Below are positions 2,826 through 50,799 of a stretch of DNA of 62,117 nt, piece by piece. The stretch's first letter is position 1; each line of letters starts with the position of its first letter. A model generated the notes under the pieces. It was not told the DNA's origin, ran no database searches, and saw only the letters and a program-made list of their open reading frames with translations. This DNA comes from Tannerella forsythia (GTDB lineage: Bacteria; Bacteroidota; Bacteroidia; Bacteroidales; Tannerellaceae). The position numbers and the translations under genes were made by a program. The DNA lies in contig NZ_RQYN01000021.1 in the NCBI RefSeq assembly GCF_003860135.1, positions 1-62,117 of the forward strand, written 5' to 3'.

Positions 2826-4382
2826 TTAGAAATTGCAACCTACGCTGATTGATAACATGTTTCTATTGCCGAAACGCTTATTTTGTGCTTTGGCATAAGA
2901 AGCATCCGCGCGAACGTACACGTTCACGTCTGCGGCATGGTTTATTTTCTGCGAATAAACGCCTGAAAGATGCGCGCCAAAGAAGCCCGATGTATCGTAT
3001 TCATTGTCTTTCTTCTCTAACTGCGAATGTATCGGGTACTCTTTATAAGCCCCTCCGTACAGATAGCTTCCGTCGATATTTTTTCCGTACATCAGCCGGG
3101 TGCCCACCAGCAGCTTCTTCGACAACTTGTCCGACAAGGTGAAATTGCGCTTCCCGAAAGCTTCGAACACAATGTTTCTGGCGTGCTTCCTACTTTTGGG
3201 CAGGAGATATTCGTCATTCAGATCCGTATAATTTATTTTACCTCCAAGCAGGTATTTGTACTCGTCACCCTGATTCTTCGTCCATGAATATCCGACACTC
3301 AGGTATTTGCTCGCATAAATTGAACGGATGCTCTTATACAGTGTGACGTATCCTTTGAATGTCTCCGTATCGTCGAATTTCGTAACATACTCGATGCCCT
3401 TCACCATGCGCTGCATATATTCGAGATCAAGATAATGCGTATGATCTTCTCCTTTCGTTTTGAGCGATGCTTTCTGATGCCACACACGATCGATGACCGT
3501 ACCTTCTTTTCTCGGGTTCGTAAACGAAACCTCGGCATCTTCTACACTCGTGAGATAATTACCCGTCAGCATCAGATCGATACTCCCCGAGTAATGATAC
3601 TGCAAGCCTGCTCCAAGGCTTTTACGGATATAGTTCGTCGTTCTTCCGCTGCCGATACCGATGATGGCATTTCCCAAACCGCGCAATTCGTAAAACGGCT
3701 GATCGATATAGACGTTGACGTTTGACATATTCGACTCCTCCTTGAAAACCCCGTATTCGAGATTCAAACCGAGGCGATTGTGGCTATTGACGGAGTAAAC
3801 GACTCCGGGACGGACGGAGAGCTTCATCGCATAATTCTCCGTGCGGATATCGCGTTGCTTGGCCGCCAGATAAGCATAGTATTCTCCTCCGACACCGAAT
3901 AACCATTTCTCTCCGATAGCAGGGAAATTGATCTTGTATTCCAGTTCGTAATACTGATTGTTCCAGTCGCTCGAGAGCGTGTCGGCCACGAAGTAAGGCA
4001 TGCCGCGATAAGGGGTGATCAGCGAAGCGTTAAACCTCGCATCCTTGACCGCGTTCCGTGCGTAATCAAATCTTCCCCAGAAATAGAAGTCGCGAATATT
4101 TACGCCTCCTTCGGTATTTAGCGTAAGATTTTTGTTCTTGTCTCCTTCCATCACCCGATGATACTTGCCGTTTTGCAGCGTATATCCTCCGGAGAGCGTC
4201 GCGTAGTTCTTTGATTGATCGAGCTTCAGACCGGCCGCGTTCGACGATTGATTCCAAACCCACGTCATTTTCATTTTTTCGGCTGCTACCGGTGAGAGGC
4301 CGGCTTCCTGTGCTGACGTGACGGCGACCGACGAAAGGAAAAGCCACAAGAGAAATTGCTTCTTATATGTTGTTCGTTGCAT
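2826..4382 (-). CDS. DUF6850-like outer-membrane beta-barrel protein
   Basis: The 518-residue protein has a Sec signal peptide (about residues 1-24, ending VTSAQ). Alternating amphipathic strands run throughout, and it ends in an aromatic residue (GCNF), the usual C-terminal signature of outer-membrane barrels. The conserved start LSPVAAEKMKMTW and overall length match the DUF6850 family as I know it from Bacteroidales. It follows the DUF4876 gene after 28 bp. This TonB-DUF4876-DUF6850 order recurs in Bacteroidales, so the three probably form one outer-membrane system. No substrate is evident. Confidence 0.75.
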   Translation of the reverse strand: MQRTTYKKQFLLWLFLSSVAVTSAQEAGLSPVAAEKMKMTWVWNQSSNAAGLKLDQSKNYATLSGGYTLQNGKYHRVMEGDKNKNLTLNTEGGVNIRDFYFWGRFDYARNAVKDARFNASLITPYRGMPYFVADTLSSDWNNQYYELEYKINFPAIGEKWLFGVGGEYYAYLAAKQRDIRTENYAMKLSVRPGVVYSVNSHNRLGLNLEYGVFKEESNMSNVNVYIDQPFYELRGLGNAIIGIGSGRTTNYIRKSLGAGLQYHYSGSIDLMLTGNYLTSVEDAEVSFTNPRKEGTVIDRVWHQKASLKTKGEDHTHYLDLEYMQRMVKGIEYVTKFDDTETFKGYVTLYKSIRSIYASKYLSVGYSWTKNQGDEYKYLLGGKINYTDLNDEYLLPKSRKHARNIVFEAFGKRNFTLSDKLSKKLLVGTRLMYGKNIDGSYLYGGAYKEYPIHSQLEKKDNEYDTSGFFGAHLSGVYSQKINHAADVNVYVRADASYAKAQNKRFGNRNMLSISVGCNF

Positions 4383-4410: not shown

Positions 4411-5652
4411 TTATTTTAGGGTATGATTCCAACTCGGCATTTTAGCGTTGTAGCGTCTGAACATGGGAACGACCCCTCTTTCAAAATCTTCCGTACTGTT
4501 GTTCGTATCTTGCAAAAAAGGAGTTCCATCAGGGTTCTCTCCGATCTTTTTACGGGCTACACCGAGTGAATTATAGGTCGCACCGACGGTCGTGATTCCG
4601 GCATCCAGTACGCCCGGCATCCGCTTGGCATTGACCTTCGTCTCGTCGTCTACGGCTTCTACACCGTCTAACACATACTCAATCGGAATCTTTGCATAGA
4701 GCATCTTGGATGAACTGCTCTGGTCTTTTGTCTGTAATGCCGGATTATTGACCGGATCATACGTCTCTCCTTCGGGCACTTTGAAAATAACGTAGGCGCC
4801 ACCGAAAACAGAAGTTAAATATTGGGGTGCCCTTCCTTTATCGGCCTTTCCATTGAAATAGACATGTTCCATATCGAGGGCCGGTTGATCCGGGAACTTC
4901 GGATTGTTCATATTAAATTCGAACTCCGAGCTGAAACAGTCGACAGGTGAATTCGGATTGTAAATGTCGAGCTTATGATTGGCAGCGAACTGTGAAATCA
5001 CGCAACTCTCACCGGGCTTCAAAGGGTAAGTCGTTCCATTGCCGGGAAACTTCCATATCCTCTCGGTGTAGACATATTTGTCGCCGTCCTCCTGAGGCCA
5101 TACGGGAAGGGTTGACGTCGACTTGGTCGGATACAGCACGGCAAAATAAATACCGTCCAAATAGTGAAGCTCTTCCGAGTTGTTATATATTTCGTAAAAC
5201 TGATTCCGGAAATAGAAATTCGCGGTTCCCGAATAGAAGATTTCTTTGAATATAAGCGGACTGATTTTCTGACCGGAAATAGGCAAATCGATCGTCGCAC
5301 GATTATTCAATATGGGATGGTTCACTAAACTGCCATTTAAATAATACGATACGCCCTCCTTGTTCTTCAATTTTCCCGAGATGACGATGCTGTACATTCC
5401 GGGAATCAGATTGCCAATCTCTATGGTCGAGGAAGTGAGTTCTTTTTCCACGCGGATTCCTTCGACATAATTATTCAAAATAAGTTTCAGTCCGTTCGTG
5501 TTATCAAAGCCGGACAATGTGATTTTGGACCGAATGGTAATGGAGATCGGCGTTATTTCTTTCGTTTCGAGGGCATCGGAAAACGACTCGCATGATACCA
5601 GCAAAGACGCTAACCCGATGAGTGCAAAATATATTTTTTTATTCATAGTCAA
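4411..5652 (-). CDS. DUF4876 surface lipoprotein
   Basis: The protein has 413 residues with a lipobox LLVSC (Cys about residue 21) followed by E-S, so it is probably a surface-exposed lipoprotein partner of the TonB receptor. Early strands resemble a carboxypeptidase-regulatory/Ig-like domain (residues about 35-125), followed by the FKEIFYSG...FYEIYNNS block typical of DUF4876, a lamin-tail-like beta fold. It starts 8 bp after the TonB receptor stop. Alternative starts MTMNKK (5652) and MNKK (5646) are both possible. In this position it plays the part SusD-like proteins play elsewhere, though it is not SusD-like in sequence. Confidence 0.8.
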   Translation of the reverse strand: MTMNKKIYFALIGLASLLVSCESFSDALETKEITPISITIRSKITLSGFDNTNGLKLILNNYVEGIRVEKELTSSTIEIGNLIPGMYSIVISGKLKNKEGVSYYLNGSLVNHPILNNRATIDLPISGQKISPLIFKEIFYSGTANFYFRNQFYEIYNNSEELHYLDGIYFAVLYPTKSTSTLPVWPQEDGDKYVYTERIWKFPGNGTTYPLKPGESCVISQFAANHKLDIYNPNSPVDCFSSEFEFNMNNPKFPDQPALDMEHVYFNGKADKGRAPQYLTSVFGGAYVIFKVPEGETYDPVNNPALQTKDQSSSSKMLYAKIPIEYVLDGVEAVDDETKVNAKRMPGVLDAGITTVGATYNSLGVARKKIGENPDGTPFLQDTNNSTEDFERGVVPMFRRYNAKMPSWNHTLK

Positions 5653-18156: not shown

Positions 18157-18882
18157 TTATATGTTTGTGTTGTAGCGGATGGATATTTTGATGATCGCGA
18201 TAGATTTGATATTTTCTATGAGTACATCTTGCGGCTGATGGTGTTGGTTGTAGCTTACAAGCGTGACATACCTATCTCCTTTCTCGGATTTCTGCAAGTA
18301 TTTGGTGGCGAACATTTCGTCGCCGTCTGCATTTATATATATACCATGTATTTCGCCCCACAGTGCATTTTCTATATTGATTGATTTATAGCATACTATA
18401 TCTCCCGCTTTGAGGATCGGATACATCGAGTCTCCGCGCACAGGTATAGCGCCATCACATTTGGGGGCGTTGGGTATGATTATGTTACCGATCGGGACCT
18501 GATTGGTCTGGTCGCTAAATAGTGAGGTGAGGCCTGCTGATATTTCGGTCTCGTAGAGTGGAATGGTCTGTAATTCATAGCGTCGGTCTGTCGGGCGTCC
18601 GTAGAGGGTGATTGGGGAGCTCTCGTTTACGATCGGTTTTTCTATAGAGGTTATTTTATATTGGTTTTTGAACATTTCTCCCTGTCCGGTGAGAAGCCAC
18701 TCGGGAGAAACATCGGGATAATTTTCAACCAATTTTTCTATCCATTTGCTCTGAATGTCGGTTTTTTTAAGTATGGCACGGGACAAAACACCCTTACTGG
18801 CACCTATTGACCGTTCTAATGCGCCTATTGTAATTCTTTTTCTTTCAGCTATTTGTGAAATTCTGTCTAAAATTATCCCCAT
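18157..18882 (-). CDS. Phage repressor with S24 (LexA-like) peptidase domain
   Basis: The 241-residue protein has an N-terminal helix-turn-helix (about residues 5-65, IGALERSIGASKGVLSRAI) and a C-terminal S24 domain. The latent protease dyad is Ser152 in RGDSMYP and Lys194 in FATKYL, so SOS-type self-cleavage is plausible, though the usual AG cleavage bond is seen only as SAGL near residue 116. It should maintain lysogeny by binding the AAAATTATCCCC repeats at 18869-18932, the first of which overlaps its own start codon. It is divergent from the early operon. Confidence 0.93.
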   Translation of the reverse strand: MGIILDRISQIAERKRITIGALERSIGASKGVLSRAILKKTDIQSKWIEKLVENYPDVSPEWLLTGQGEMFKNQYKITSIEKPIVNESSPITLYGRPTDRRYELQTIPLYETEISAGLTSLFSDQTNQVPIGNIIIPNAPKCDGAIPVRGDSMYPILKAGDIVCYKSINIENALWGEIHGIYINADGDEMFATKYLQKSEKGDRYVTLVSYNQHHQPQDVLIENIKSIAIIKISIRYNTNI

Positions 18883-27631: not shown

Positions 27632-28005
27632 TTATTGCGATAGACTTTGATGGAACGATCCACGACGGCGTGTGGCCCGGGATCGGAGAGCCTCGCGAGG
27701 GGGCAAAGGAAGCGATAAATAACCTTCGGGCAGAGGGGCACTACATTATAATATGGACGTGTCGCGAGGGCGTACAGCAAACAGAGATGGTAAACTGGCT
27801 GCTGGCGCAGGGAATCGGTTTTGATCGCGTGAACGACCACAATCCTGCGCAGGTGGCGATGTATAAGAATAATTCGCGCAAGGTGTACGCTCATTGTTAT
27901 ATAGACGATAAGAATGTGGGCGGGCTGCCGAGCTGGGGCGAAATTGCGCTGCTGGTACGTAGGCAGGAAGCGGAATATCAAGGGAAAGTGAAAAGTGAAG
28001 AGTGA
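27628..28005 (+). CDS. HAD-superfamily hydrolase
   Basis: The 125-residue single-domain protein has the HAD motif I DFDGT (Asp6, Asp8) and a late IDDKN (motif IV-like), plus WTCREG in the motif II position. It is the small phage-type phosphatase that acts on nucleotides or polynucleotide ends. Its location next to the PAPS-reductase-like gene suggests nucleotide or DNA modification metabolism (inference). Confidence 0.8.
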   Translation: MIIAIDFDGTIHDGVWPGIGEPREGAKEAINNLRAEGHYIIIWTCREGVQQTEMVNWLLAQGIGFDRVNDHNPAQVAMYKNNSRKVYAHCYIDDKNVGGLPSWGEIALLVRRQEAEYQGKVKSEE

Positions 28006-28015
28006 AAAGGGAAAA

Positions 28016-28888
28016 ATGAAGATAATAGTTACATTTTCAGGAGGGAAAGATAGCCTTGCAGCTCTTTTGTGGGTAAGAAATAACATGTCGAAAAAAATCA
28101 CAATCGTTTTTTGTGACACGGGGTGGGAGAGCGATTTGACGTACAAGTATATCGACGAAATAGACAAGAGATTAAACCTTAACATTGTAAGGTTGAAGTC
28201 AAAGAAGTATAGCAGCTTGGTAGACTTGGCGGAAAAGAAGACGAGATTTCCGTCGTCTCAACGACGGTTCTGTACAAGTGAATTAAAGAGCATTCCGATG
28301 ATTGACTACATCCTCGACGAAGTGAATGATGATTTCATAGTCGTTCAGGGTATTCGAGGCGCAGAAAGCGCGTCAAGAGCGGCAATGAACTCGCAATGCA
28401 ACTACTTCAAGTATTATATAAACCCATACAAAGTAGACAAAAACGGCAAGCCTAAATTTCACACTTACAGAAGAAAAGAGATATTAAAGTTCTGCGAAAA
28501 GCATGCAACGGACGTGCTTAGACCTGTCTTTAATTGGTCTGCACAGCAGGTGGTCAATTATATCCTTGACAATGGTTTAGAACCGAACCCTCTCTACCGC
28601 ATGGGGATGAAGCGTGTTGGGTGTTTTCCTTGTGTTATGTGCGGGCTATCGGAAATTCACCAGATCGCGACTCGTTTTCCAGACAGGATAGCAGAAGTAT
28701 CCGAACATGAAAAGAGAATTGGTAGCAGCTTCTTCGGCCCAGACAAGATACCGAGTAGATTTTACGACAGAGAATACCCGCTTGTAAACGATGTGGTGCG
28801 ATATGCAAAGAATAAATATGATGCAGGACAATTGTTCGACGACTCGACTGAAACTACCTGCATGAGTTACTATGGATTATGTGAATAG
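28016..28888 (+). CDS. PAPS reductase-family (PP-loop) protein
   Basis: The 290-residue protein has the N-terminal PP-loop SGGKDSLAA (residues about 8-16) and an adenylation-type fold. Cysteines in RRFCTSELKS, CFPCVMCG and the tail TCMSYYGLC could hold a metal cluster. Relatives include sulfate-assimilation reductases and DndC of DNA phosphorothioation, but phage members have no established role. ATG at 28016 gives MKIIVTFSGGKDS; an upstream GTG is in frame. A remnant of a second copy's 3' end lies at 29760-29819. Confidence 0.8.
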   Translation: MKIIVTFSGGKDSLAALLWVRNNMSKKITIVFCDTGWESDLTYKYIDEIDKRLNLNIVRLKSKKYSSLVDLAEKKTRFPSSQRRFCTSELKSIPMIDYILDEVNDDFIVVQGIRGAESASRAAMNSQCNYFKYYINPYKVDKNGKPKFHTYRRKEILKFCEKHATDVLRPVFNWSAQQVVNYILDNGLEPNPLYRMGMKRVGCFPCVMCGLSEIHQIATRFPDRIAEVSEHEKRIGSSFFGPDKIPSRFYDREYPLVNDVVRYAKNKYDAGQLFDDSTETTCMSYYGLCE

Positions 28889-28897
28889 AATAAAATA

Positions 28898-29113
28898 ATG
28901 GATACTGGATATTTGGAAGAAGCGTTAAAAAGTCATGCGATTGTAGTTTCGCAGGCTGTTTCTGCATTGGCGGAAATAGAGGCGATGAAAGCTGCTAATG
29001 TCATGGCTGCTGATCTCGGTCATACAATCCCCTACGGGCCTGAGGCTTTCAAGGACGTTGTTGGCGAGTGTGGGCTTGATTATAATGCGGTGGTAGGGAT
29101 GTTTATAAGATGA
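28898..29113 (+). CDS. Small hypothetical protein
   Basis: A 71-residue, mildly acidic helical protein of unknown function. Its stop overlaps the start of the methyltransferase-like gene (ATGA), so the two are translationally coupled and appear to have been inserted together. Confidence 0.5.
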   Translation: MDTGYLEEALKSHAIVVSQAVSALAEIEAMKAANVMAADLGHTIPYGPEAFKDVVGECGLDYNAVVGMFIR

Positions 29114-29739
29114 ACGCAAACGGTAGAAGAATGCTGGTAGCATGTGAATTTTCAGGGCGAGTTCGGGACGCCTTCGCAGCGCAGGGATGGGACGCGTGGA
29201 GCTGCGATCTGCTTCCGACGGAGACGCCGGGACAGCATTATCAGTGCGATGTTAGGGAGGTGTTAAACGAAGGATGGGATTTGATGATTGCGCATCCGCC
29301 GTGCACGTATCTCGCTGTCTCCGGAAATCGGAGTATACCTTGTAATCCGGAGCGATGGGGCAAGCGATATGAGGCTCTGATGTTCGTGTGGGAGCTGTAT
29401 TCCGCAGATATCAAACATATCGCGATTGAAAATCCGGTGTCGGTGCTTTCGACGTATCTGCGTAAGCCCGACCAGATCGTGCACCCGTTTTTCTTCGGTG
29501 ATAAGGTTTCAAAATCAACGTGTTTGTGGTTGAAGGGATTGCCTGTACTGCATGCGACGGATATGGTTCAACCCGAATACGAGCTGTGCAGAAGCAAGAA
29601 AAACAAAAGCGGTTTCTCGAAGTATTCCAGAACCGCGATGTTAGGTTCCGGGAAGGGGCACCAGCGTAGCATTACTTTTCCCGGATTTGCCCGCGCGATG
29701 GCGGAGCAATGGACGAAGTATATTATATCGAATGAGTGA
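29110..29739 (+). CDS. Phage cytosine-methyltransferase-like protein
   Basis: The 209-residue protein has a Rossmann-type start (RMLVACEFSGRVRDAFAAQGWDAWSCD), AHPPCTYLAVSG with a PPC motif like the catalytic loop of C5 methyltransferases, and IENPVSVL in the position of the ENV motif. It lacks a clear target-recognition domain and is shorter than a complete Dcm enzyme, so a reduced or divergent activity is possible. It may protect phage DNA from restriction. Confidence 0.7.
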   Translation: MNANGRRMLVACEFSGRVRDAFAAQGWDAWSCDLLPTETPGQHYQCDVREVLNEGWDLMIAHPPCTYLAVSGNRSIPCNPERWGKRYEALMFVWELYSADIKHIAIENPVSVLSTYLRKPDQIVHPFFFGDKVSKSTCLWLKGLPVLHATDMVQPEYELCRSKKNKSGFSKYSRTAMLGSGKGHQRSITFPGFARAMAEQWTKYIISNE

Positions 29740-29759
29740 TTGTTTTTCATGATTAAGGG

Positions 29760-29819
29760 CAACTGTTCGATAATGGCGAGGCAATAACTTGCATGAGTTA
29801 TTACGGATTATGTGAATAG
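29760..29819 (+). pseudogene. Remnant of a second PAPS-reductase gene 3' end
   Basis: These 20 codons read QLFDNGEAITCMSYYGLCE-stop, against QLFDDSTETTCMSYYGLCE-stop at the end of the PAPS-reductase-like gene (28829-28888). Nucleotide similarity begins just before, but a TAA interrupts the frame, and continues past the stop (GAATAGAATAA). The intervening 0.9 kb holds the small ORF and methyltransferase, as if these were inserted between or recombined with a paralogous copy. Confidence 0.8.
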
Positions 29820-29846
29820 AATAATATTAAAAAAAATCAGCAAACT

Positions 29847-30155
29847 ATGAAAGAGTGTGACTTAAAAAGCCTGATGTCAGAATATTTCGCCAATAAAGAC
29901 GAAATAAAAAGGATGAAGCGTGCAAGGCGTGATTTGATGATTAAGAGCAACTTCTTCAGTATAGAAGAATGTAAAGAGTGTACATGGAAAATATCTGAAG
30001 ATGGGGATGACAGGGTGGTAGTATTGTGTGAAACATGTAAGACCATCGATGAATACTACGAGGCCATTAAAAAAATGGCTGAAAAGAATAGAGGTATAAT
30101 TAATCGTGTTAGAGGTATTTGTAGAAAAAATATTAAAAGCGACAGGGTCGGATAA
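29847..30155 (+). CDS. Hypothetical protein with paired cysteines
   Basis: The 102-residue charged protein has CKECTW (about residues 38-43) and LCETCKTIDEYYEAI (about 60-74); the two CxxC pairs could bind zinc. Function unknown. It is the last gene before the antirepressor cassette and is followed by a hairpin at 30208-30240. Confidence 0.6.
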   Translation: MKECDLKSLMSEYFANKDEIKRMKRARRDLMIKSNFFSIEECKECTWKISEDGDDRVVVLCETCKTIDEYYEAIKKMAEKNRGIINRVRGICRKNIKSDRVG

Positions 30156-30207
30156 AAGAGATCGATTTGTTATTTTTATATAGTTGTTTGTTTTAGTTGA
30201 TTTTTGG

Positions 30208-30240
30208 GCTGCCTGTTCGGGAGAATCGGCAGCTTGTTTA
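30208..30240 (+). terminator. Hairpin ending the early operon
   Basis: GCTGCC-N14-GGCAGC followed by TTGTTT. A moderate intrinsic terminator downstream of the 29847-30155 gene. Confidence 0.5.
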
Positions 30241-30356
30241 AAAAGATTATCGAGGACGAGCCTTGCCTCGAAAAATAAACAAGGTGCGTTCGCTACGCTT
30301 AAACACTTACTGGGTCGCTCCCGTGTCTGACGAACGAACTTGTATTAAGTTGCATA

Positions 30357-30398
30357 AACGGCTCTGCGAGATGGCAGCTTCCAGCTCAACCGTTTTTT
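30357..30398 (+). terminator. AAACGG/CCGTTTTTT hairpin
   Basis: Nested hairpin: outer AAACGG pairs with CCGTTT and inner TGG-CAGCTT-CCA can pair, followed by a run of T. It sits just upstream of the promoter of the structured RNA and could insulate it from upstream transcription. Confidence 0.5.
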
Positions 30399-30418
30399 AT
30401 AAAAAACAACTTGCGTGA

Positions 30419-30448
30419 TTGGAATTAGAAAAATTGTTTGTATGTTTG
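30419..30448 (+). promoter_or_regulatory. Promoter of the structured RNA upstream of BRO
   Basis: TTG (30419-30421), a 19-bp spacer and TATGTTTG (30441-30448) match the Bacteroidetes consensus exactly. Transcription would begin about 30455, at the 5' side of the closing helix of the RNA. Confidence 0.7.
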
Positions 30449-30452
30449 CAAC

Positions 30453-30603
30453 GCTAAAGTTTATTAAGTGTAGGCAGTTAGACTGCCCAAACATTGCGTT
30501 GAGGGCATTTTTTATGTCCGGCAACATGCTTGCAATATGCGGCGCACCAACCCCGTGCATACGTTGTAATGGCGTATGCAAGCCTACACTAATAGACTTT
30601 AGC
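30453..30603 (+). ncRNA. Candidate structured RNA controlling the antirepressor
   Basis: GCTAAAGT (30453-30460) pairs perfectly with ACTTTAGC (30596-30603), and AGTGTAGGC (30467-30475) pairs perfectly with GCCTACACT (30582-30590). The short linkers also pair (one G-U and one bulged A), giving a nearly continuous helix of about 22 bp. Inside are TGCATACG/CGTATGCA (30556-30563/30573-30580), a CAG-TTAGA-CTG hairpin (30475-30485) and an A/T-rich arm. It has its own promoter and lies 53 nt before the BRO start. By analogy with phage P1/P7 C4 RNA it may regulate antirepressor expression. Confidence 0.65.
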
Positions 30604-30656
30604 AGCGGGAAGTGGAGCGCCGTTTTCTGTTCCACATGCTATAAATATTAGTGATT

Positions 30657-31367
30657 ATGAACAAAAAAGAAAGCCCAGCTCAGGCGGTAAACGAGCAAAC
30701 CGAAGTGATTACTTTCCAGTTCTCGGAAAGTAAAAAGGAAATCAGAAATGTGTTTATCGGTGAAATACCGCATTTTGTAGGTGTAGACGTCGCGAATGCA
30801 CTGGGATACAGTAATACTCGTGATGCCCTTAGACAACATTGTAGGTACGTCGTAAAATGCGACGTACCCCATCCGCAGAACCCCCAAAAGCAGCTCGAGG
30901 TGTCCGTTATCCCCGAAAGCGATGTATATCGGCTGATAATGAAAAGCACGTTGCCAAGCGCACAGGCGTTTGAACGGTGGGTAATGGAAGAAGTGCTTCC
31001 ATCGTTGCGCCGTCGGGGTTTTTACGGCATCCAGCGTTCGGCTGACAGCGATTTTATCGATGCCCGCGATATGCCTTACGACGAATATCCTGTAAATGGC
31101 TTCAATGTCCGAAGCATCACCATCGACGGCACGGTTTGGGCATCGGTAAATGACATTAATAAGGCCATACACGCCAGCACAGGCAGCTATCAAGTAGTAA
31201 AGAAGTTGAATGCCAAGCAAACGCTTGCCGTTAAAATCTGGCTTTACGGAAACACGCATCCGGCGTGGTTTACCAACGAACTTGGGTTGAAACTGATCCT
31301 TTCAGGAAGCCGCAAGCTGAGAAATGCTAACCAGTTGGTTTTACCGATGGAAGGAGGTGCGCAATGA
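30657..31367 (+). CDS. BRO-N antirepressor
   Basis: The 236-residue protein has a BRO-N domain (residues about 15-115; FQFSESKKEIRNVFIGE...FVGVDVANALGYSNTRDALRQHC) followed by a second domain from about 140 (NVRSITIDGTVWASVNDINKAI). BRO-N/Ant proteins typically antagonise phage repressors. No strong ribosome site precedes the ATG at 30657, and a hairpin (GTGGA/TCCAC, 30612-30635) lies in the leader, so translation may be controlled. The 3' end carries the GGAGGTGCGC junction shared with following genes. Confidence 0.85.
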   Translation: MNKKESPAQAVNEQTEVITFQFSESKKEIRNVFIGEIPHFVGVDVANALGYSNTRDALRQHCRYVVKCDVPHPQNPQKQLEVSVIPESDVYRLIMKSTLPSAQAFERWVMEEVLPSLRRRGFYGIQRSADSDFIDARDMPYDEYPVNGFNVRSITIDGTVWASVNDINKAIHASTGSYQVVKKLNAKQTLAVKIWLYGNTHPAWFTNELGLKLILSGSRKLRNANQLVLPMEGGAQ

Positions 31368-31993
31368 TGATGGCGGTAAACGAGCTACGTGTAGTGATGA
31401 TCAACGATCGTCGCTTTGCCGTAGAAGAGAGAAACGGCAATATCAGTTTTAACCTGACCATGATGGCCAAGCCGTTCGGAAAAGTGCCCAAAGATTGGCG
31501 CAAAACCGATGAAGCGCAACGCTATTTGGAGGCTTTGACCAAAGGGAGAAAAATCCCTTTGGCTGATTTATTGGAAGTTAGAAAGGGAGGGGTGCCCCAT
31601 CTTGCAGGAACGTGGGCTACGGATTACCGTATTGCGATGCGTTTTGCCCAATGGCTTGATCCGGATTTTGCGATTGCTGTAGACGAGTTGGTGTTTAATG
31701 TGCTCACGAGACAGGCTGCTGTGGCTCACGCCCCGCTAAAATATGGCGTTTCGGCTGTTATACACGACGGCATGCCACTTTATCCTTACGCAGATATTGT
31801 ACGAGCCTTGGGAGGCAGCGCACGCGGCGGTACACAATGGCGGCGGGCGAAGTTCCCGCATCACTTTGTAAAACTCTTCGGACGCAATTTTATCACTCCA
31901 CAGTACGCTGATCTGTTAGCGAGTTATTACAGTTATCGGCAGGCGCAGTTGTCTCTGGATTTTGGTTTGTCGGAGAAAGGGGGTGCGCGATGA
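31364..31993 (+). CDS. KilA-N domain protein
   Basis: The 209-residue protein has a KilA-N core (SFNLTMMAKPFGKVPKDWRKTDEAQRYL, about residues 26-53, continuing to MRFAQWLDPDFAIAVDELV, about 90-108). KilA-N proteins bind nucleic acid and often act as antirepressors or antitermination-type regulators. It overlaps BRO by 4 bp and starts in the shared motif GGAGGTGCGCAATGATG. The C-terminal part (about 125-209) may be a separate DNA-binding domain. Confidence 0.8.
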   Translation: MMMAVNELRVVMINDRRFAVEERNGNISFNLTMMAKPFGKVPKDWRKTDEAQRYLEALTKGRKIPLADLLEVRKGGVPHLAGTWATDYRIAMRFAQWLDPDFAIAVDELVFNVLTRQAAVAHAPLKYGVSAVIHDGMPLYPYADIVRALGGSARGGTQWRRAKFPHHFVKLFGRNFITPQYADLLASYYSYRQAQLSLDFGLSEKGGAR

Positions 31994-32331
31994 TGCTTGA
32001 ATTGAAAAATGTGAAGCGTTACGTTGCTCTGAGCGATACGCATCTGCAGGTCTTTATGGATGGCGAGGATTTCTTTATCAAAAGCCCTTGGGTAAAGTTG
32101 TTCCGCATTTGTGTGAAAAAACTGGTTCTGCGGGTTGAAGGGCGTCGCTGTGTTGGGACTGTTCCTGTGCCGGCGCATATTGCTGCCATGCCGGTTCCGG
32201 GGCGCGAAACACGCGCCAACCGGCTTACGCCAAACCGCATGATTCACCTGCTTACACTGGCGCATCAGATTAAGGACGAAAAGTTGCGCCTCGAACTCGT
32301 TCGGGAGCTGACGGAAGGAGGTGCGCAATGA
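31990..32331 (+). CDS. Small antirepressor-cassette protein A
   Basis: A 113-residue protein starting MMLELKNVKRYVALSDTHLQVFMDGEDFF, paralogous at its N-terminus with the next gene. The middle is basic with a hydrophobic patch. Function unknown. It begins at a conserved GGGGGTGCGCGATGATG junction (31979-31995) and overlaps the KilA-N gene by 4 bp. Confidence 0.6.
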   Translation: MMLELKNVKRYVALSDTHLQVFMDGEDFFIKSPWVKLFRICVKKLVLRVEGRRCVGTVPVPAHIAAMPVPGRETRANRLTPNRMIHLLTLAHQIKDEKLRLELVRELTEGGAQ

Positions 32332-32534
32332 TGCTCGAACTGAAAAATGTGAAGCGTTGTGATGTGCTGAGCGATACACATTTCCTTATATTTGTGGACT
32401 GTGAGGATTTCTTCGATATGCTTGATCAGCGTTCGCCGAATTTGTTGATTCAGTACCTGAACAGCCGACACGGAATGACTATACAGCCGATTGACGGTAG
32501 GAAGAAAGGAGGCGTATATGGTTGTGTTTTATAA
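32328..32534 (+). CDS. Small antirepressor-cassette protein B
   Basis: A 68-residue protein starting MMLELKNVKRCDVLSDTHFLIF, clearly a paralogue of protein A in the first 25 residues; the remainder differs. It begins at the third GGAGGTGCGCAATGATG junction (32317-32333). Function unknown. Confidence 0.6.
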   Translation: MMLELKNVKRCDVLSDTHFLIFVDCEDFFDMLDQRSPNLLIQYLNSRHGMTIQPIDGRKKGGVYGCVL

Positions 32535-46150: not shown

Positions 46151-48277
46151 ATGGCAAAAGGAAAAAGATATGAGGGCGAATTTATTAGCGTAGCGGGAGT
46201 GCGCTATCGGGTCGAAATTTGGCAAGAGGGCTACTCCGGCAACGTAGGAGAACTGTCCTTCCCTTACGACACGCCGCTCACAATCGAGTGGAGCGAGGTG
46301 AATAAAATCGAACCTGTCATGTCGTCTGCCGCGACGCTGACCGTTATCTCCGATAGCGATCGTCGCTTCGTCGATCTCTATACCACCGTCGCGGGCAGCA
46401 TCCGCTTAGACGTCTATCGCGAAAATAAAAAGTATTGGAGCGGAACGCTCGATCCGGAAATCTACGAAGAGCCGTTTGCGCAGCAAGACGGCTACGATGT
46501 GACGCTTACATTTAGCGATTTCGCCATCCTCGACCGGATTAAATTCGAGAAAACGACGCGGCGCTTTTGGTCGCTGCAGTCGCTTATCGATTTGTGTATC
46601 GAAAAAAGCGGTATCGAGCTTGAAGGCGTACAGGAATATATCTCGACGACAACGGATAAAGGCGCGTTGCTGCTCGCAAACACGTGCCTGATAGACGAGA
46701 ACTTCTTCGACGAAGACAACGAGCCCATGACCTTGCGCGAAATCTTAGACGAGATGCTGCGTCCCTTCGCGCTGCGCATGCAGCAAAAGGACGGTAAGGC
46801 GCATGTGTATGATATTCACGCGCTCCACTCCCTGCAAACGAAGCCTGTGCGCTGGTGCCTCGACGACTCCACTCTCGGCGTCGATCAGACATTTAATAAC
46901 TGTGAACTAACGTTCTCGCCGTACATGAAGAACAAACTCATTGAGGCCGAGAACGACCCTGCGTGGATCAAAGATTCGGAATGCACGTCGCACCGCGTCA
47001 ACGTCGATTATTCGGATAACAACTTTCCCGGATTCGATATGCTGCTTAAACCGCACAATTTCGCGAAGAGTAAGTTCCGCATCTACGACGTGCTTAATCT
47101 CACGAAGTATTTTAAAATCAAACCGCAGCTGTCCGGCGATTCCGAGTCGGGCGTCGCGTTTGTTTTTCATACCCGCCGCGGCCATCAGGATTATGTGCCC
47201 CAATGCGGGCATGTATCTAACACTAACGTCGGGGCGTGGGTTGAAATGAAAGAAAAACCTTTCGTTTTCTACGATTACGACAAAGAAAAAGATTACTTGA
47301 TTAATCTCAAGATCGAGGCGCTCGTCGATGTTCGCTATAACCCCTTCGAGGACGCGGGCGACGACAACGAGCGAGGCTGGTGGAAAGAGTTTAATCATCA
47401 ATGCAATTACTCGTATATCCCATTTCGATTAATTCTGCGCGACGAAAACGGACAGGCGCTGTTTCACTACGATAACTCCGAAGTTTTAAATACGTGGCTG
47501 AATGTCAATACGTATGAGACAGGGCGTCGGTGGGAACCGGGCGAGGGCAACTGGGAGTCGGCACATGCGGCGTATTACGAAAAAGACGTTGATGGGCGCA
47601 AGAAAAAAACAGGCTGGGGCGGTTGGAAAACGAATCAGCCCATTATCGGCTACTATCGTTGGGAGTTGCCTTCCATCTTCGATAAAATGTTCGAAGGGGA
47701 GTATATCCCCATGCCGCCCGTCTCGGGATGGCTGGAGGTGCAGGTGGGCGGCGCGCTGAAAATGAAGGATTACGGGTTCGAACAAACGTTCGATCATCAA
47801 AAAATTCATTGGTTCTTAATTAAAAACGTGAGTATGAACCTCGTCGGCGCATACGGGCAGGAACTGAGCGAAGGCGATATCGTCGTGCGGGCATGGGTCG
47901 ATAAGGCTGCAAAGGAGGGCATGGAAATCGACACCGTCTGCGGCACAATGCCCGACGGCGCGCACCCGACGGCACGGGGGCAATTCTTTCTGTCGTCGCG
48001 GGAGGTTATCTCAAATTTCACGCGTGCGGGCGTGACGGATAAGGTTGAACGCCTCTTGCTCGGCACGGTTTATTCGCAGTATTACGGCCGCAAAAAGAAG
48101 CTGTCCGGAACGGCCGATATCGTCAGCGAGCTAAGTCCGATGACCGACGAGCACGAAGCGGGTAAATTTATGATTGTGTCCGAGATACAGGATTTAATCA
48201 AAGACGAAAGCAACCTCGCGATGGTGGAGATCGCGCAGGATAATTTCACGGGAGTACCTTTTGAGGAGGAGGATTAA
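46151..48277 (+). CDS. Distal tail / baseplate protein
   Basis: The 708-residue protein is in the position after the tape measure. The N-terminal region (YEGEFISVAGVRYRVEIWQEGY... IEPVMSSAATLTVISDSDRRFVDLYT) is the beta-sandwich typical of distal tail hub proteins in Bacteroidetes siphophages. Enzyme motifs are not evident. The next gene starts 2 bp after the stop. Confidence 0.75.
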   Translation: MAKGKRYEGEFISVAGVRYRVEIWQEGYSGNVGELSFPYDTPLTIEWSEVNKIEPVMSSAATLTVISDSDRRFVDLYTTVAGSIRLDVYRENKKYWSGTLDPEIYEEPFAQQDGYDVTLTFSDFAILDRIKFEKTTRRFWSLQSLIDLCIEKSGIELEGVQEYISTTTDKGALLLANTCLIDENFFDEDNEPMTLREILDEMLRPFALRMQQKDGKAHVYDIHALHSLQTKPVRWCLDDSTLGVDQTFNNCELTFSPYMKNKLIEAENDPAWIKDSECTSHRVNVDYSDNNFPGFDMLLKPHNFAKSKFRIYDVLNLTKYFKIKPQLSGDSESGVAFVFHTRRGHQDYVPQCGHVSNTNVGAWVEMKEKPFVFYDYDKEKDYLINLKIEALVDVRYNPFEDAGDDNERGWWKEFNHQCNYSYIPFRLILRDENGQALFHYDNSEVLNTWLNVNTYETGRRWEPGEGNWESAHAAYYEKDVDGRKKKTGWGGWKTNQPIIGYYRWELPSIFDKMFEGEYIPMPPVSGWLEVQVGGALKMKDYGFEQTFDHQKIHWFLIKNVSMNLVGAYGQELSEGDIVVRAWVDKAAKEGMEIDTVCGTMPDGAHPTARGQFFLSSREVISNFTRAGVTDKVERLLLGTVYSQYYGRKKKLSGTADIVSELSPMTDEHEAGKFMIVSEIQDLIKDESNLAMVEIAQDNFTGVPFEEED

Positions 48278-48279
48278 GC

Positions 48280-50799
48280 ATGAGCAATTATTCATATCGC
48301 ATATTAACAAAGCCGGCGCGTTTGCGTATCGAAGCCGGTACTGACAAAGCGGGCGGCCAGGCCCGCGAAATCGGGGGCAGTGGCAGCGGATCGGGCTCGA
48401 CGGGTTCCGGATCGGCTCCGGGCGCGTCTGCGAACTCGTTTGTGGCAGGCGATCGCATACAAATCGACGCGAATAAAAGCGTTATAAAAATATCGCACGA
48501 AGAAGCAAAAGAAGAGAATAAAGATTCGCAGACGCTCAACGAAAAAGGATATTTTGTTAAATGTCTGCACTTAGACAAGCAAGGTCATATCGTTAAAGTC
48601 GAGACAGAAGAAATCGCGGGCACGTTCGACGATCGTTATCTGCGCAAAGACAAGCCCGATGAGACGAATTTTAAAATAACGTTTCTACAGGGGGCTGATT
48701 TCGGACATTTTGTCGAGGGTTTTTTGGGCAGTGGCGGCCGAATTGACGAAAATGGGAACTGCTGGTTCGGAGGGATGCGGCTGCGGGATTTTCTCGAAGT
48801 GCCGGAGCTGCGTTTTAATCGTATCGACGTGGTTAGCGGCGAGTTGTGGAACTCGATCGCGTTCGGACTTATCGAAGATGTCGACACGGCAAACAGGATC
48901 GTGACGCTCAAGCTCGAAGAAGGCGAGCGCTCCGGATTGCATGTAAACGATTTCTGCCGCGGGCTATTTCACAACCTGACCGGAAACGAGACGACGGCAG
49001 GCGTCGACGCTTGCGGCTTTGATAAGCTGCCCGGGTTCTCGACGTCGTATTTTATGCCCGTGCAAATTCTCGATAATAAGCGGTTTAAGTACAATCTTAA
49101 ACCGGGTACGACGGTACATCCGTGCAAGGCGATGAAATTCGCCGTGTACGGTAATGCAACCGACAAAGCACGACAATCGTCCGCATACCATACGCGTAAT
49201 TATGTACGTTATCTGTGCGACGTCGACACGTGGGAGATTAAACCCCAGCACATTGGCGTGCAGATGGGAGACCTTTCGGGGCTGGTTATCGATGGCGAAA
49301 ATCTCGGGAGAAAGTCGATCTATCTCGACAACGTGTATTTCGGCAAGAATATTTTACAAACGCCCGGACTCAAAGAATCATTGAAGGGAAAAGACGCCTA
49401 TACCGTCGGCCTCGATCGCTATTCGCAGGCGTACAATTCCGCAAATGGAGGTGTAAATCAAATCACCTTCACCGCTTTTGCCTCGAAGGGCGGGCAGCCG
49501 CTCGCGTTTTCGACCGTGTCCGGAGAGGGTAAATTTACCCTTTCTGTCAAATCCGTGTCGGGTTGCACAGTCGCGCAGGCTGGTGCATCCGTGCGCTTTA
49601 CGTCGTTCTCAAGTACGAGCACCGGAACCGTCGTTGTAACTGTAAATTGCGAGGGGCTTGTCTCTTATCAGCTGTCTTTCGTTGCTACGAGGGTGGCCGA
49701 TGGGAGTCCCGGCGATCCGGGCAAAAAAGGGGATGTCGTTCGCAGTGTTTATCGTCGCTCCGCATCCCAGCCCGGATATCCGCAAGGGAATCCGCCATTT
49801 GGGTGGCAATTCGACCCGTTTGCTGGCACGAATCCGCTGTGGATGTCGCAGGCGACGTTCAATGCTGCGGGCGAGGTGGTTACAAGCTGGTCTTATCCTG
49901 TGCGTATCACGGGCGACGCCGGATTGCCGGGCACGAATGGAACACCCGGCCCGATGCCGAGCATGCGCGGCACGTGGGATAGTAACAAAACCTATAACGG
50001 CTCGTCGTTCTTTGTCGATGTCGTTATGTATAATAATCGATACTACAGAGCGAAGCCAAACGCGGGCGTGTTCAGCGGCGTGCATCCGTCGAATCCTAAC
50101 AAATGGGAATTATTAAACTCGTTCGAAAACGTTGCGACCAAGCTGCTTATCGCAGAAGAAGCAAATATAGCGGGGTGGCTGTTTAATAAGAACTACATCC
50201 TAAGCCAGAACCGCAATGTCGGCATGGACGGTTCTGCAGATAATAAGCCGCGGTTCTGGGCCGGGTCAGGCTATGCAGGCAGGGATAACGCGCCGTTTCG
50301 AGTGTATGAAAACGGTACGATCGTGGCTAAAGAAGGGCAAATCGGAGGTTTTATGATACGAGAAGAAAGCCTTACGAATACGTCCGGACACAAGGTGAAC
50401 GGCGCGTGGACGGGTCTTCAACTCTCACCGTGGGGATTTATTCACCTTTCAGACAGTAATAATAATCGCTCGGCGATGATGACGCATTACAGCTCGCCGG
50501 TTACTCAGAATGCGCTGCTTACACTCCGTGTCAGTCGCGAAGATGACGGGGTTCCAGCCGAATTTTTTAACTGTTTTTATTCTGCGTCCGGAAGCCTTCG
50601 GGGTTTTTGTGTAACCGCACAGAATCTCGGAGATGCGAGCTGGTATCGACGAATATGTATTACAGCAAGCCACATGCCGCATCGAAATCAAGCCGTAAGG
50701 TTGCCCAAATGGAGTAATTCTGATATAAACGATCCGGAATTTTACGAAGTGTTATGGGATAGACGTTCCGGAACGTTCGTGATTGGTAATATTCGGTAA
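48280..50799 (+). CDS. Tail fibre / receptor-binding protein
   Basis: The 839-residue protein has an N-terminal G/S-rich linker (GGSGSGSGSTGSGS, about 32-45), an ISHEEAKEE region, an Ig-like domain (about 395-480; VSGEGKFTLSVKSVSGCTVAQ), collagen-like GSPGDPGKKGD and GDAGLPGTNGTPGP stretches (about 480-570), and a C-terminal trimeric head-like region. This modular layout suits a host-recognition fibre. Confidence 0.75.
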   Translation: MSNYSYRILTKPARLRIEAGTDKAGGQAREIGGSGSGSGSTGSGSAPGASANSFVAGDRIQIDANKSVIKISHEEAKEENKDSQTLNEKGYFVKCLHLDKQGHIVKVETEEIAGTFDDRYLRKDKPDETNFKITFLQGADFGHFVEGFLGSGGRIDENGNCWFGGMRLRDFLEVPELRFNRIDVVSGELWNSIAFGLIEDVDTANRIVTLKLEEGERSGLHVNDFCRGLFHNLTGNETTAGVDACGFDKLPGFSTSYFMPVQILDNKRFKYNLKPGTTVHPCKAMKFAVYGNATDKARQSSAYHTRNYVRYLCDVDTWEIKPQHIGVQMGDLSGLVIDGENLGRKSIYLDNVYFGKNILQTPGLKESLKGKDAYTVGLDRYSQAYNSANGGVNQITFTAFASKGGQPLAFSTVSGEGKFTLSVKSVSGCTVAQAGASVRFTSFSSTSTGTVVVTVNCEGLVSYQLSFVATRVADGSPGDPGKKGDVVRSVYRRSASQPGYPQGNPPFGWQFDPFAGTNPLWMSQATFNAAGEVVTSWSYPVRITGDAGLPGTNGTPGPMPSMRGTWDSNKTYNGSSFFVDVVMYNNRYYRAKPNAGVFSGVHPSNPNKWELLNSFENVATKLLIAEEANIAGWLFNKNYILSQNRNVGMDGSADNKPRFWAGSGYAGRDNAPFRVYENGTIVAKEGQIGGFMIREESLTNTSGHKVNGAWTGLQLSPWGFIHLSDSNNNRSAMMTHYSSPVTQNALLTLRVSREDDGVPAEFFNCFYSASGSLRGFCVTAQNLGDASWYRRICITASHMPHRNQAVRLPKWSNSDINDPEFYEVLWDRRSGTFVIGNIR

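What the first reader, a model, noticed from the sequence alone, without database searches (positions are those of the whole stretch)
30453..30603. Helix-closed structured RNA with its own promoter in front of the BRO antirepressor
Seen directly: two perfect segments, GCTAAAGT/ACTTTAGC and AGTGTAGGC/GCCTACACT, plus pairing linkers, make a nearly continuous 22-bp helix enclosing about 105 nt with at least two internal hairpins. A consensus promoter (TTG-N19-TATGTTTG) places transcription start at its 5' edge. The P1/P7 C4 antisense RNA is an established precedent for RNA control of an antirepressor. Inference: this is a Bacteroidetes phage counterpart, possibly undescribed.
Basis: partly seen in the sequence, partly recalled or inferred. 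Interest (0 to 1): 0.75.

Follow-up and report, generated by a model that had tools for sequence, protein, structure and literature searches.

The report
C4-type antisense RNA controlling phage antirepressor
A prophage of a Bacteroidota bacterium carries, just before its antirepressor gene, an RNA module laid out like the C4 antisense RNA of phage P1; relatives with different sequences but the same pairings sit before antirepressors, toxin-like and small unknown genes in other members of the phylum.

Summary
The helix lies at 30453-30603 and beats shuffles (z -3.4). Relatives keep it by compensatory change; the 78-codon frame is not conserved. The window reads: promoter, a1b1 arm (30453-30475), C4-like body (30540-30626: closing stem, hairpin, a'b' strand 30582-30603), then a partial copy of a1b1 at the BRO start codon (30638-30653). 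This is the order annotated in phage P1: a1, b1, C4, a2, b2, icd/ant. The 'closing helix' is the a1b1:a'b' duplex; a'b' can instead pair, more weakly, with the BRO start. Over 37 loci each pairing prefers its own locus (0 of 20,000 within-type permutations each), though the start-codon pairing is weak in one subtype. Three of 20 relatives scanned match Rfam c4-2; the window matches no C4 family even at E up to 10. Related modules precede BRO, KilA-N, AntA, Rha and SymE-like genes and unknown small proteins. In two near-identical contigs the RNA plus the Bro-N half of the gene has been exchanged. Best reading: a C4-type antisense system repressing BRO translation, a new variant of a known kind. 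Expression, processing and trans action are inferred.

The parts
30419..30448 (+). Bacteroidota-type promoter TTG-N19-TATGTTTG
   Evidence: read directly; TAnnTTTG at the same place in 33 of 41 loci
   Evidence: pairs with 30582-30603, -32.0 kcal/mol; own partner ranked first in 37 of 37 loci (segmentation chose the best own helix, so this rank is biased)
30540..30556 (+). 5' strand of the C4-like closing stem
   Evidence: fold z -3.86; 13 type I bodies: 6 of 14 pairs with changes on both sides (1 of 500 shuffles), covariation score 0 of 500 shuffles
30557..30579 (+). hairpin P2 of the C4-like body
   Evidence: shorter in 6 of the 13 type I bodies aligned
   Evidence: pairs with a1b1 (-32.0) or with the BRO start region (-12.0); own start region favoured over permuted ones
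30605..30622 (+). 3' strand of the C4-like closing stem, followed by UUUU (30623-30626)
30638..30653 (+). a2b2: proposed target of a'b', just before the BRO start codon
30657..31367 (+). BRO antirepressor (Bro-N), the gene proposed to be regulated; ATG at 30657
   Evidence: PF02498 1.5e-23, phrog_130 1.3e-39
31364..31993 (+). KilA-N protein, probably same operon; in L045 the RNA sits directly on a KilA-N gene
   Evidence: PF04383 4.4e-12; L045
18157..18882 (-). CI-like repressor, plausible object of the antirepressor (context only)
   Evidence: phrog_4 4.7e-23

Best explanation
30453-30653 is a C4-type antisense immunity module. A transcript starting at about 30449 carries in order a1b1, a C4-like body containing the antisense strand a'b', and a2b2 at the BRO start codon. 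When the C4-like RNA is available (inferred: released by processing at the foot of its closing stem and/or ended at the U-run after it), a'b' pairs with a2b2 and blocks translation of the antirepressor, keeping the prophage quiet and making the cell immune to phages of the same type. In the unprocessed transcript a'b' is held by a1b1 in the 22-bp helix, which would keep it off the BRO start (inferred). Shown: the layout, the possible pairings, their covariation and their preference for the own locus. Inferred: expression, processing, trans action, effect on BRO, and that BRO antagonises the CI-like repressor.
For: Same order of parts as annotated for phage P1, and the same calculation on P1 gives -21.2 (a1b1) and -18.7 (a2b2). 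37 loci: a1b1 x a'b' own -23.7 vs within-type permuted -10.5; closing stem -23.5 vs -17.4; a'b' x start -11.0 vs -6.8; 0 of 20,000 each. Compensatory changes in 12 of 12 helix pairs (8 of the 11 rows were found by BRO similarity, without regard to the helix). 3 of 20 scanned relatives (L222, L224, L225) pass the Rfam c4-2 threshold. A mechanical detector finds the arrangement before 16 of 16 relatives tested, against 4 of 198 other ORFs (its thresholds were set after these loci had been seen). Downstream genes include four kinds of phage regulator: BRO, KilA-N, AntA, Rha. L032 and L035 are identical in 30-nt blocks up to the promoter end and again from mid-BRO, and differ in between, as expected of an exchangeable immunity cassette.
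Against: Neither RF01695, RF02944 nor RF03163 hits the window. The window itself fails the detector: its closing stem has an uninterrupted run of only 6 Watson-Crick pairs (threshold 7). Its a'b':a2b2 pairing is much weaker than a'b':a1b1 (-12.0 vs -32.0); a cofold of body and target predicts no a'b':a2b2 contact; and the start region is predicted about equally open with and without the a1b1 arm (0.53 and 0.59 unpaired), so plain folding does not show the proposed switch. Over all 37 loci the own start region ranks first for a'b' in only 17; in type III the preference is weak (153 of 20,000; first in 2 of 12). The a1b1 x a'b' test is biased, because segmentation picked the best own helix; the closing-stem test is slightly biased for 6 loci picked by a detector that asked for such a stem. 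Four remoter BRO loci (L040-L043) lack the arrangement. No expression data.
Confidence: 0.77

Rival explanations
1. A purely cis-acting leader switch: a'b' chooses between a1b1 (start free) and a2b2 (start blocked) within one mRNA, with no separate small RNA. The a'b':a2b2 pairing plus the closing stem would make an H-type pseudoknot over the start region.
For: All segments are in one presumed transcript, and in 21 of 23 loci the closing stem's 3' strand begins within 2 nt of the end of a'b'; the a1b1 arm is present in all 37 tested loci.
Against: The far stronger a1b1 pairing would nearly always win in cis unless a1b1 is removed; start-region openness hardly changes with the arm in a plain fold; P1 C4, the characterised system with this layout, acts as a processed RNA of about 77 nt (passages of PMC5320573).
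Confidence: 0.17
2. The region encodes a 78-aa Cys-containing protein (30415-30651).
For: The frame is open in the window and up to the start codon in L045 and L057.
Against: L002 and L055 have stops in all three frames; L045 is 89% identical in DNA over 557 nt but only 47% in this frame, with gaps that shift the frame; no Pfam or PHROG match.
Confidence: 0.02
3. The pairings are a by-product of DNA-level repeats (operators or recombination sites) rather than RNA structure.
For: a1b1 and a2b2 are partial direct repeats, and cassette exchange has occurred.
Against: GU pairs are used, and the closing-stem and hairpin covariation with a C4-like fold fits RNA.
Confidence: 0.03

Closest known systems
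C4 antisense RNA of phages P1 and P7 (Rfam RF01695) with its a1b1 target (RF03163)
   Same: Order promoter - a1b1 - C4 - a2b2 - antirepressor operon; closing stem, P2, antisense strand next to the closing stem; a'b' complementary to both a1b1 and a2b2; phage antirepressor as target.
   Different: No covariance-model hit in the window; closing-stem sequence unlike (5' CGGCGC..CCCCG against 5' GGTGGGG..GGGG); the target directly abuts the start codon; no icd-like gene between; stronger a1b1 duplex (-32.0 vs -21.2) and weaker a2b2 duplex (-12.0 vs -18.7).
c4-2 RNA (Rfam RF02944, clan CL00128)
   Same: 3 type III relatives (L222, L224, L225) pass its threshold; its closing stem and GAAA hairpin correspond to those seen here in types II and III.
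   Different: The Rfam model has neither a1b1 nor a2b2, and does not detect the window's type I subtype. Whether its describers named its targets was not checked: their paper was not held.
SymE/SymR type I toxin-antitoxin (recalled from general knowledge)
   Same: Three type I relatives (L212, L232, L235) precede SymE-like genes.
   Different: E. coli SymR is, as recalled, an overlapping antisense RNA; here a C4-like module lies upstream on the same strand.
Sar antisense RNA of phage P22 (passage of PMC12197685)
   Same: Small RNA that represses an antirepressor by pairing with its mRNA and hindering translation initiation.
   Different: As recalled, a different structure without the a1b1/C4/a2b2 layout.

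Membership tests
C4 antisense RNA (RF01695) | score above the family's gathering threshold | tested here: not met
   no hit in the window at gathering nor at E up to 10 in 30150-30800 or 28900-32160 (L001); P1 itself scores 68.8 in the same tool
C4 antisense RNA (RF01695) | a1b1 upstream and a2b2 downstream, both complementary to the RNA, before an antirepressor operon | tested here: met
   the a2b2 pairing is the weaker one
C4 antisense RNA (RF01695) | closing stem enclosing hairpins and the antisense strand | tested here: met
   fold of 30540-30626; covariation in 13 bodies
C4 antisense RNA (RF01695) | processing by RNase P to a short RNA of about 77 nt | not testable with these tools
   known for P1/P7 from passages of PMC5320573
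C4 antisense RNA (RF01695) | represses antirepressor translation in trans | not testable with these tools
   -
c4-a1b1 (RF03163) | score above the family's gathering threshold | tested here: not met
   no hit in the window; P1 scores 51.0
c4-2 RNA (RF02944) | score above the family's gathering threshold | tested here: not met
   window and own genome: no hit; of 20 relatives scanned 3 pass: L222 53.6, L224 43.5, L225 43.5 bits against 41
c4-2 RNA (RF02944) | closing stem in two parts, about 10 + 4 pairs | tested here: met
   window 6 + 3 + 5 pairs; two-part form in types I, II and III
protein-coding gene (78-codon frame) | frame conserved in relatives | tested here: not met
   stops in L002 and L055, frame-shifting gaps in L045; L057 open

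The most novel reading that the evidence does not exclude
Bacteroidota carry a large, mostly unrecognised family of C4-like plug-in antisense cassettes. Each brings its own lock (a1b1), key (a'b') and keyhole (a2b2 at the start codon, sometimes within codons 2-4, so that the protein's N-terminus covaries with the RNA). They are used for phage immunity type, for SymE-like toxins and for multi-copy unknown small proteins. The a1b1 lock makes nascent transcripts resistant, so that repression depends on RNA already accumulated by the resident copy: a self/non-self memory.
Probability: 0.32. Interest if true: 0.8.

Novelty: new variant of a known kind. Interest (0 to 1): 0.62.

Why it matters
It extends the C4 immunity logic (listed for Proteobacteria and phages in the table seen) to a Mu-like Bacteroidota prophage, with a subtype that matches nothing in Rfam 15. 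It suggests a concrete target for relatives of Rfam's c4-2 motif, the start region of the downstream gene. It also shows the same device in front of toxin-like and unknown genes, so each of some 40 loci becomes a testable antisense-target pair. It offers a handle on superinfection immunity in Bacteroidota phages.

Tried and rejected
Rfam on the window at gathering and at E up to 10: nothing relevant. Rfam at E up to 10 on 12 type I or related loci: no C4 or c4-2 hit. DNA search of the phage collection: no match. DNA search of 197 genomes: 161 had some match at E up to 1, but besides the own genome only G158 (L002, 2.5e-21) is convincing; the next match, 1.3e-4, covers 35 nt. BRO protein in phages and plasmids: hits below 60% identity, not followed. 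My first reading, a pseudoknotted leader unrelated to any Rfam family (notes, though C4 was already noted as an analogy), was dropped after the c4-2 hit and the P1 comparison: the 'pseudoknot' is the C4 closing stem.

Pattern searches of viral contigs, judged by the script. Type I pattern: 10 stretches, 9 showed the arrangement, L071 (the same public contig as L031, whose 551-nt stretch here is identical to the window's) failed. Type III pattern: 12 stretches, only L200 (the contig of L033) passed. R1 hits L215, L217 and L234 look unrelated. L216 (no ORF of 50 aa at the expected place) and L211 (contig end) were left out of the tests. Of 41 segmented loci, 4 near-duplicates were dropped (L219, L220, L227, L228), leaving 37; for L066, L068, L212 and L214 the end of a'b' was set by hand. 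L232, L233, L235-L237 and L240 were read but not put into the tests. L036-L039 (same identity as L035) and L031/L044 (window-like) were treated as copies. The first permutation test on 23 loci gave the same verdict. Alignment A3 had one row from wrong coordinates and was not used; in A2 the L070 row lacks its first bases.

Papers: PMC2864571, PMC5320573, PMC8546580 and PMC12197685 seen as passages only; PMC6847099 as the start of its abstract in a listing; others as listings. PMC312442 (C4 of P1) and the paper I took to describe c4-2 were not held. No listed paper of searches was seen to treat C4-like RNAs in Bacteroidota phages, but these listings were cut (one search listed 10 of 242, 15 of 96, 15 of 20) and the library lacks most subscription journals.

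On checking, confidence was lowered from 0.80 to 0.77 and the novel case from 0.35 to 0.32, because the start-region openness result had been left out; the cis rival was raised from 0.15 to 0.17.

Full report
What is there. The region folds better than all 200 shuffles (z -3.38), and the helix forms 22 pairs with one bulge at -32.0 kcal/mol. A Bacteroidota-type promoter ends at 30448. The window is a Mu-like prophage: Mu-type portal, transposase, DNA transposition protein and terminase, with a CI-like repressor at 18157-18882. The RNA stands directly before a BRO antirepressor (PF02498; PHROG anti-repressor Ant) and a KilA-N gene. Rfam finds no C4-type family in the window.

Relatives. BRO homologues were collected from viral contigs and bacterial genomes; the RNA itself was sought in viral contigs and 197 genomes, which added L045 and L002. 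The RNA sequence is often unrecognisable between loci, yet the layout returns: promoter, 5' arm A1, an enclosed region, A' pairing with A1, then a strand pairing with the enclosed region, then a partial copy of A1 at or near the start codon. Examples of arm against start: L032 GACTGT / ATGACTGTCAAC; L061 TGCAAACA / ATGCAAACAG; L210, 14 nt shared just before the ATG; L209, 11 nt shared within the first codons. A mechanical detector, its thresholds set after seeing the loci, finds all three relations before 16 of 16 relatives tested, against 4 of 198 other ORFs of the same sequences. It misses the window itself, whose closing stem has an uninterrupted run of only 6 Watson-Crick pairs (threshold 7), and finds 0 of 4 among the remoter BRO loci L040-L043.

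Tests. In A4 (11 relatives, types II and III; 8 of them found by BRO similarity, 3 by a detector that asked for a helix) all 12 helix pairs have changes on both sides; over the 14 pairs tested 98.1% of cells are paired against 67.8% in shuffles, 0 of 500. In A2 (window and 6 type I relatives) 6 of the 12 helix pairs do. For 37 loci (41 minus 4 near-duplicates), duplex energies with the own partner against within-type permuted partners were -23.7 vs -10.5 (A1 x A'), -23.5 vs -17.4 (closing stem) and -11.0 vs -6.8 (A' x start region); 0 of 20,000 in each. The own partner ranked first in 37, 18 and 17 of 37. The first of these tests is biased, because A' was placed by its best own pairing with A1; the third is not chosen on that pairing. 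By type, the start-region preference is strong in type I (0 of 20,000; first in 13 of 15), clear in II (2 of 20,000; 5 of 9) and weak in III (153 of 20,000; 2 of 12). In 13 type I bodies 6 of 14 closing-stem pairs have changes on both sides (1 of 500 shuffles), 95.4% of cells are paired and the covariation score exceeds all 500 shuffles; the number of further pair types does not (401 of 500 reach it).

Coding is disfavoured. L002 and L055 have stops in all frames; L045 is 89% identical in DNA over 557 nt but 47% in the frame; L057 stays open. Neither Pfam nor PHROGs matches the 78-aa frame.

What it is. Rfam c4-2 (RF02944, clan CL00128) hits 3 of 20 scanned relatives above threshold: L222, L224, L225. 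Its consensus shows that the 'internal strand pairing downstream' is the closing stem of a C4-like body. In phage P1 the record annotates a1 48255-48261, b1 48269-48276, C4 48343-48419, a2 48423-48429, b2 48452-48459, icd 48470, and Rfam finds C4 and c4-a1b1 there. The window has the same order: a1b1 30453-30475, C4-like body 30540-30626 (own fold z -3.86), a'b' 30582-30603, a2b2 30638-30653, BRO ATG 30657. The same calculation on P1 gives -21.2 for a'b':a1b1 and -18.7 for a'b':a2b2; on the window -32.0 and -12.0.

How it likely works. For P1/P7 (passages of PMC5320573; PMC12197685): C4 is processed by RNase P and its a' and b' parts pair with the antirepressor mRNA around the ribosome-binding site. 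By analogy, a'b' of the window's RNA would block the BRO start. In Bacteroidota, which lack Shine-Dalgarno sequences (start of the abstract of PMC6847099 in the listing), a target at the start codon makes sense. A1 is present in every tested locus and pairs best of all, which suggests a lock on the unprocessed transcript; this is inference. Plain folding does not show the switch: a cofold of body and target predicts no a'b':a2b2 contact, and the start region is about equally open with the a1b1 arm (0.53) and without it (0.59). Processing, kinetics or a helper must be assumed.

Spread and portability. Model R1 (type I) matched 10 of 294 other genomes of the order. Of its 11 places outside the own genome, L207 (= L002), L209, L210, L212, L213, L214 and L218 were segmented; L211 is cut by the contig end, L216 has no ORF at the expected place, L215 and L217 look unrelated. 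R2 (types II/III) matched 9 of 395 genomes of the phylum, 12 places, all segmented. R1 over the phylum gave 3 other genomes (L234 looks unrelated), R2 over the order 2 of 295. RF02944 matched 3 of 41 genomes, 2 above cut-off, not the own one; of these L240, below the cut-off, shows arm and start copies by eye, and L238 and L239 were not examined further.

Downstream genes of the 41 segmented loci: 16 BRO relatives (largely because BRO was the bait); KilA-N in L045 and L185, AntA in L159, Rha in L209, SymE in L212; a roughly 90-aa protein in 11 of the 12 places, one of which was scanned without a significant Pfam match; 9 others weak or unknown (L066, L068, L070, L089, L210, L213, L214, L218, L221). 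Outside that set L232 and L235 also precede SymE-like genes. By eye, the first 14 or so codons (SPAQAxNE-like) stay alike over different domains in the window, L045, L159, L185 and L236. L045 drives a KilA-N protein carrying the BRO N-terminus. L032 and L035 are near-identical over 8 kb; in the 1.5 kb aligned, 30-nt blocks are identical up to 3840 and from 4431 to 4790, and only the stretch between, RNA plus Bro-N, differs (30-67% identity in most blocks, 87-90% over 4017-4076).

Verdict. A C4-type antisense module, new variant of a known kind. Not filed as a member of RF01695 or RF02944, because the window fails both covariance models, but it is laid out, and probably works, like C4. Expression, processing and regulation remain to be shown.

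Noticed in passing
window 31977-32075 and 32315-32413: Partial duplication: 99 nt, 79.8% identical, giving two ORFs that begin MMLELKNVKR.. at 31990 and 32328.
   Followed up: partly
L032 3841-4430 against L035: Near-identical phage contigs differ by a cassette of RNA plus Bro-N domain, as in an immunity-type exchange.
   Followed up: yes
L212, L232, L235: C4-like RNA modules directly before SymE-like toxin genes.
   Followed up: partly
L219-L230: C4-like modules before, in 11 of 12 places, a roughly 90-aa protein of unknown function, two places in 3 of 9 genomes; codons 2-4 vary together with the RNA arm by eye.
   Followed up: partly
L065 3501 onward: A type I module followed by what looks by eye like a second closing-stem/antisense unit without its own a1b1 arm.
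   Followed up: no
L061 144-226: Rfam RT-17 RNA just above its threshold (40.6 against 40.4 bits) upstream of the type III module.
   Followed up: no
window 30160-30400: Spacer of about 240 nt upstream of the promoter with an apparent hairpin (GCTGCCTG..CGGCAGC, by eye), also present in L045 within an 89% identical stretch.
   Followed up: no
window 27995-28888 and 29110-29739: PAPS-reductase-like and DNA-methyltransferase-like genes upstream of the module.
   Followed up: no
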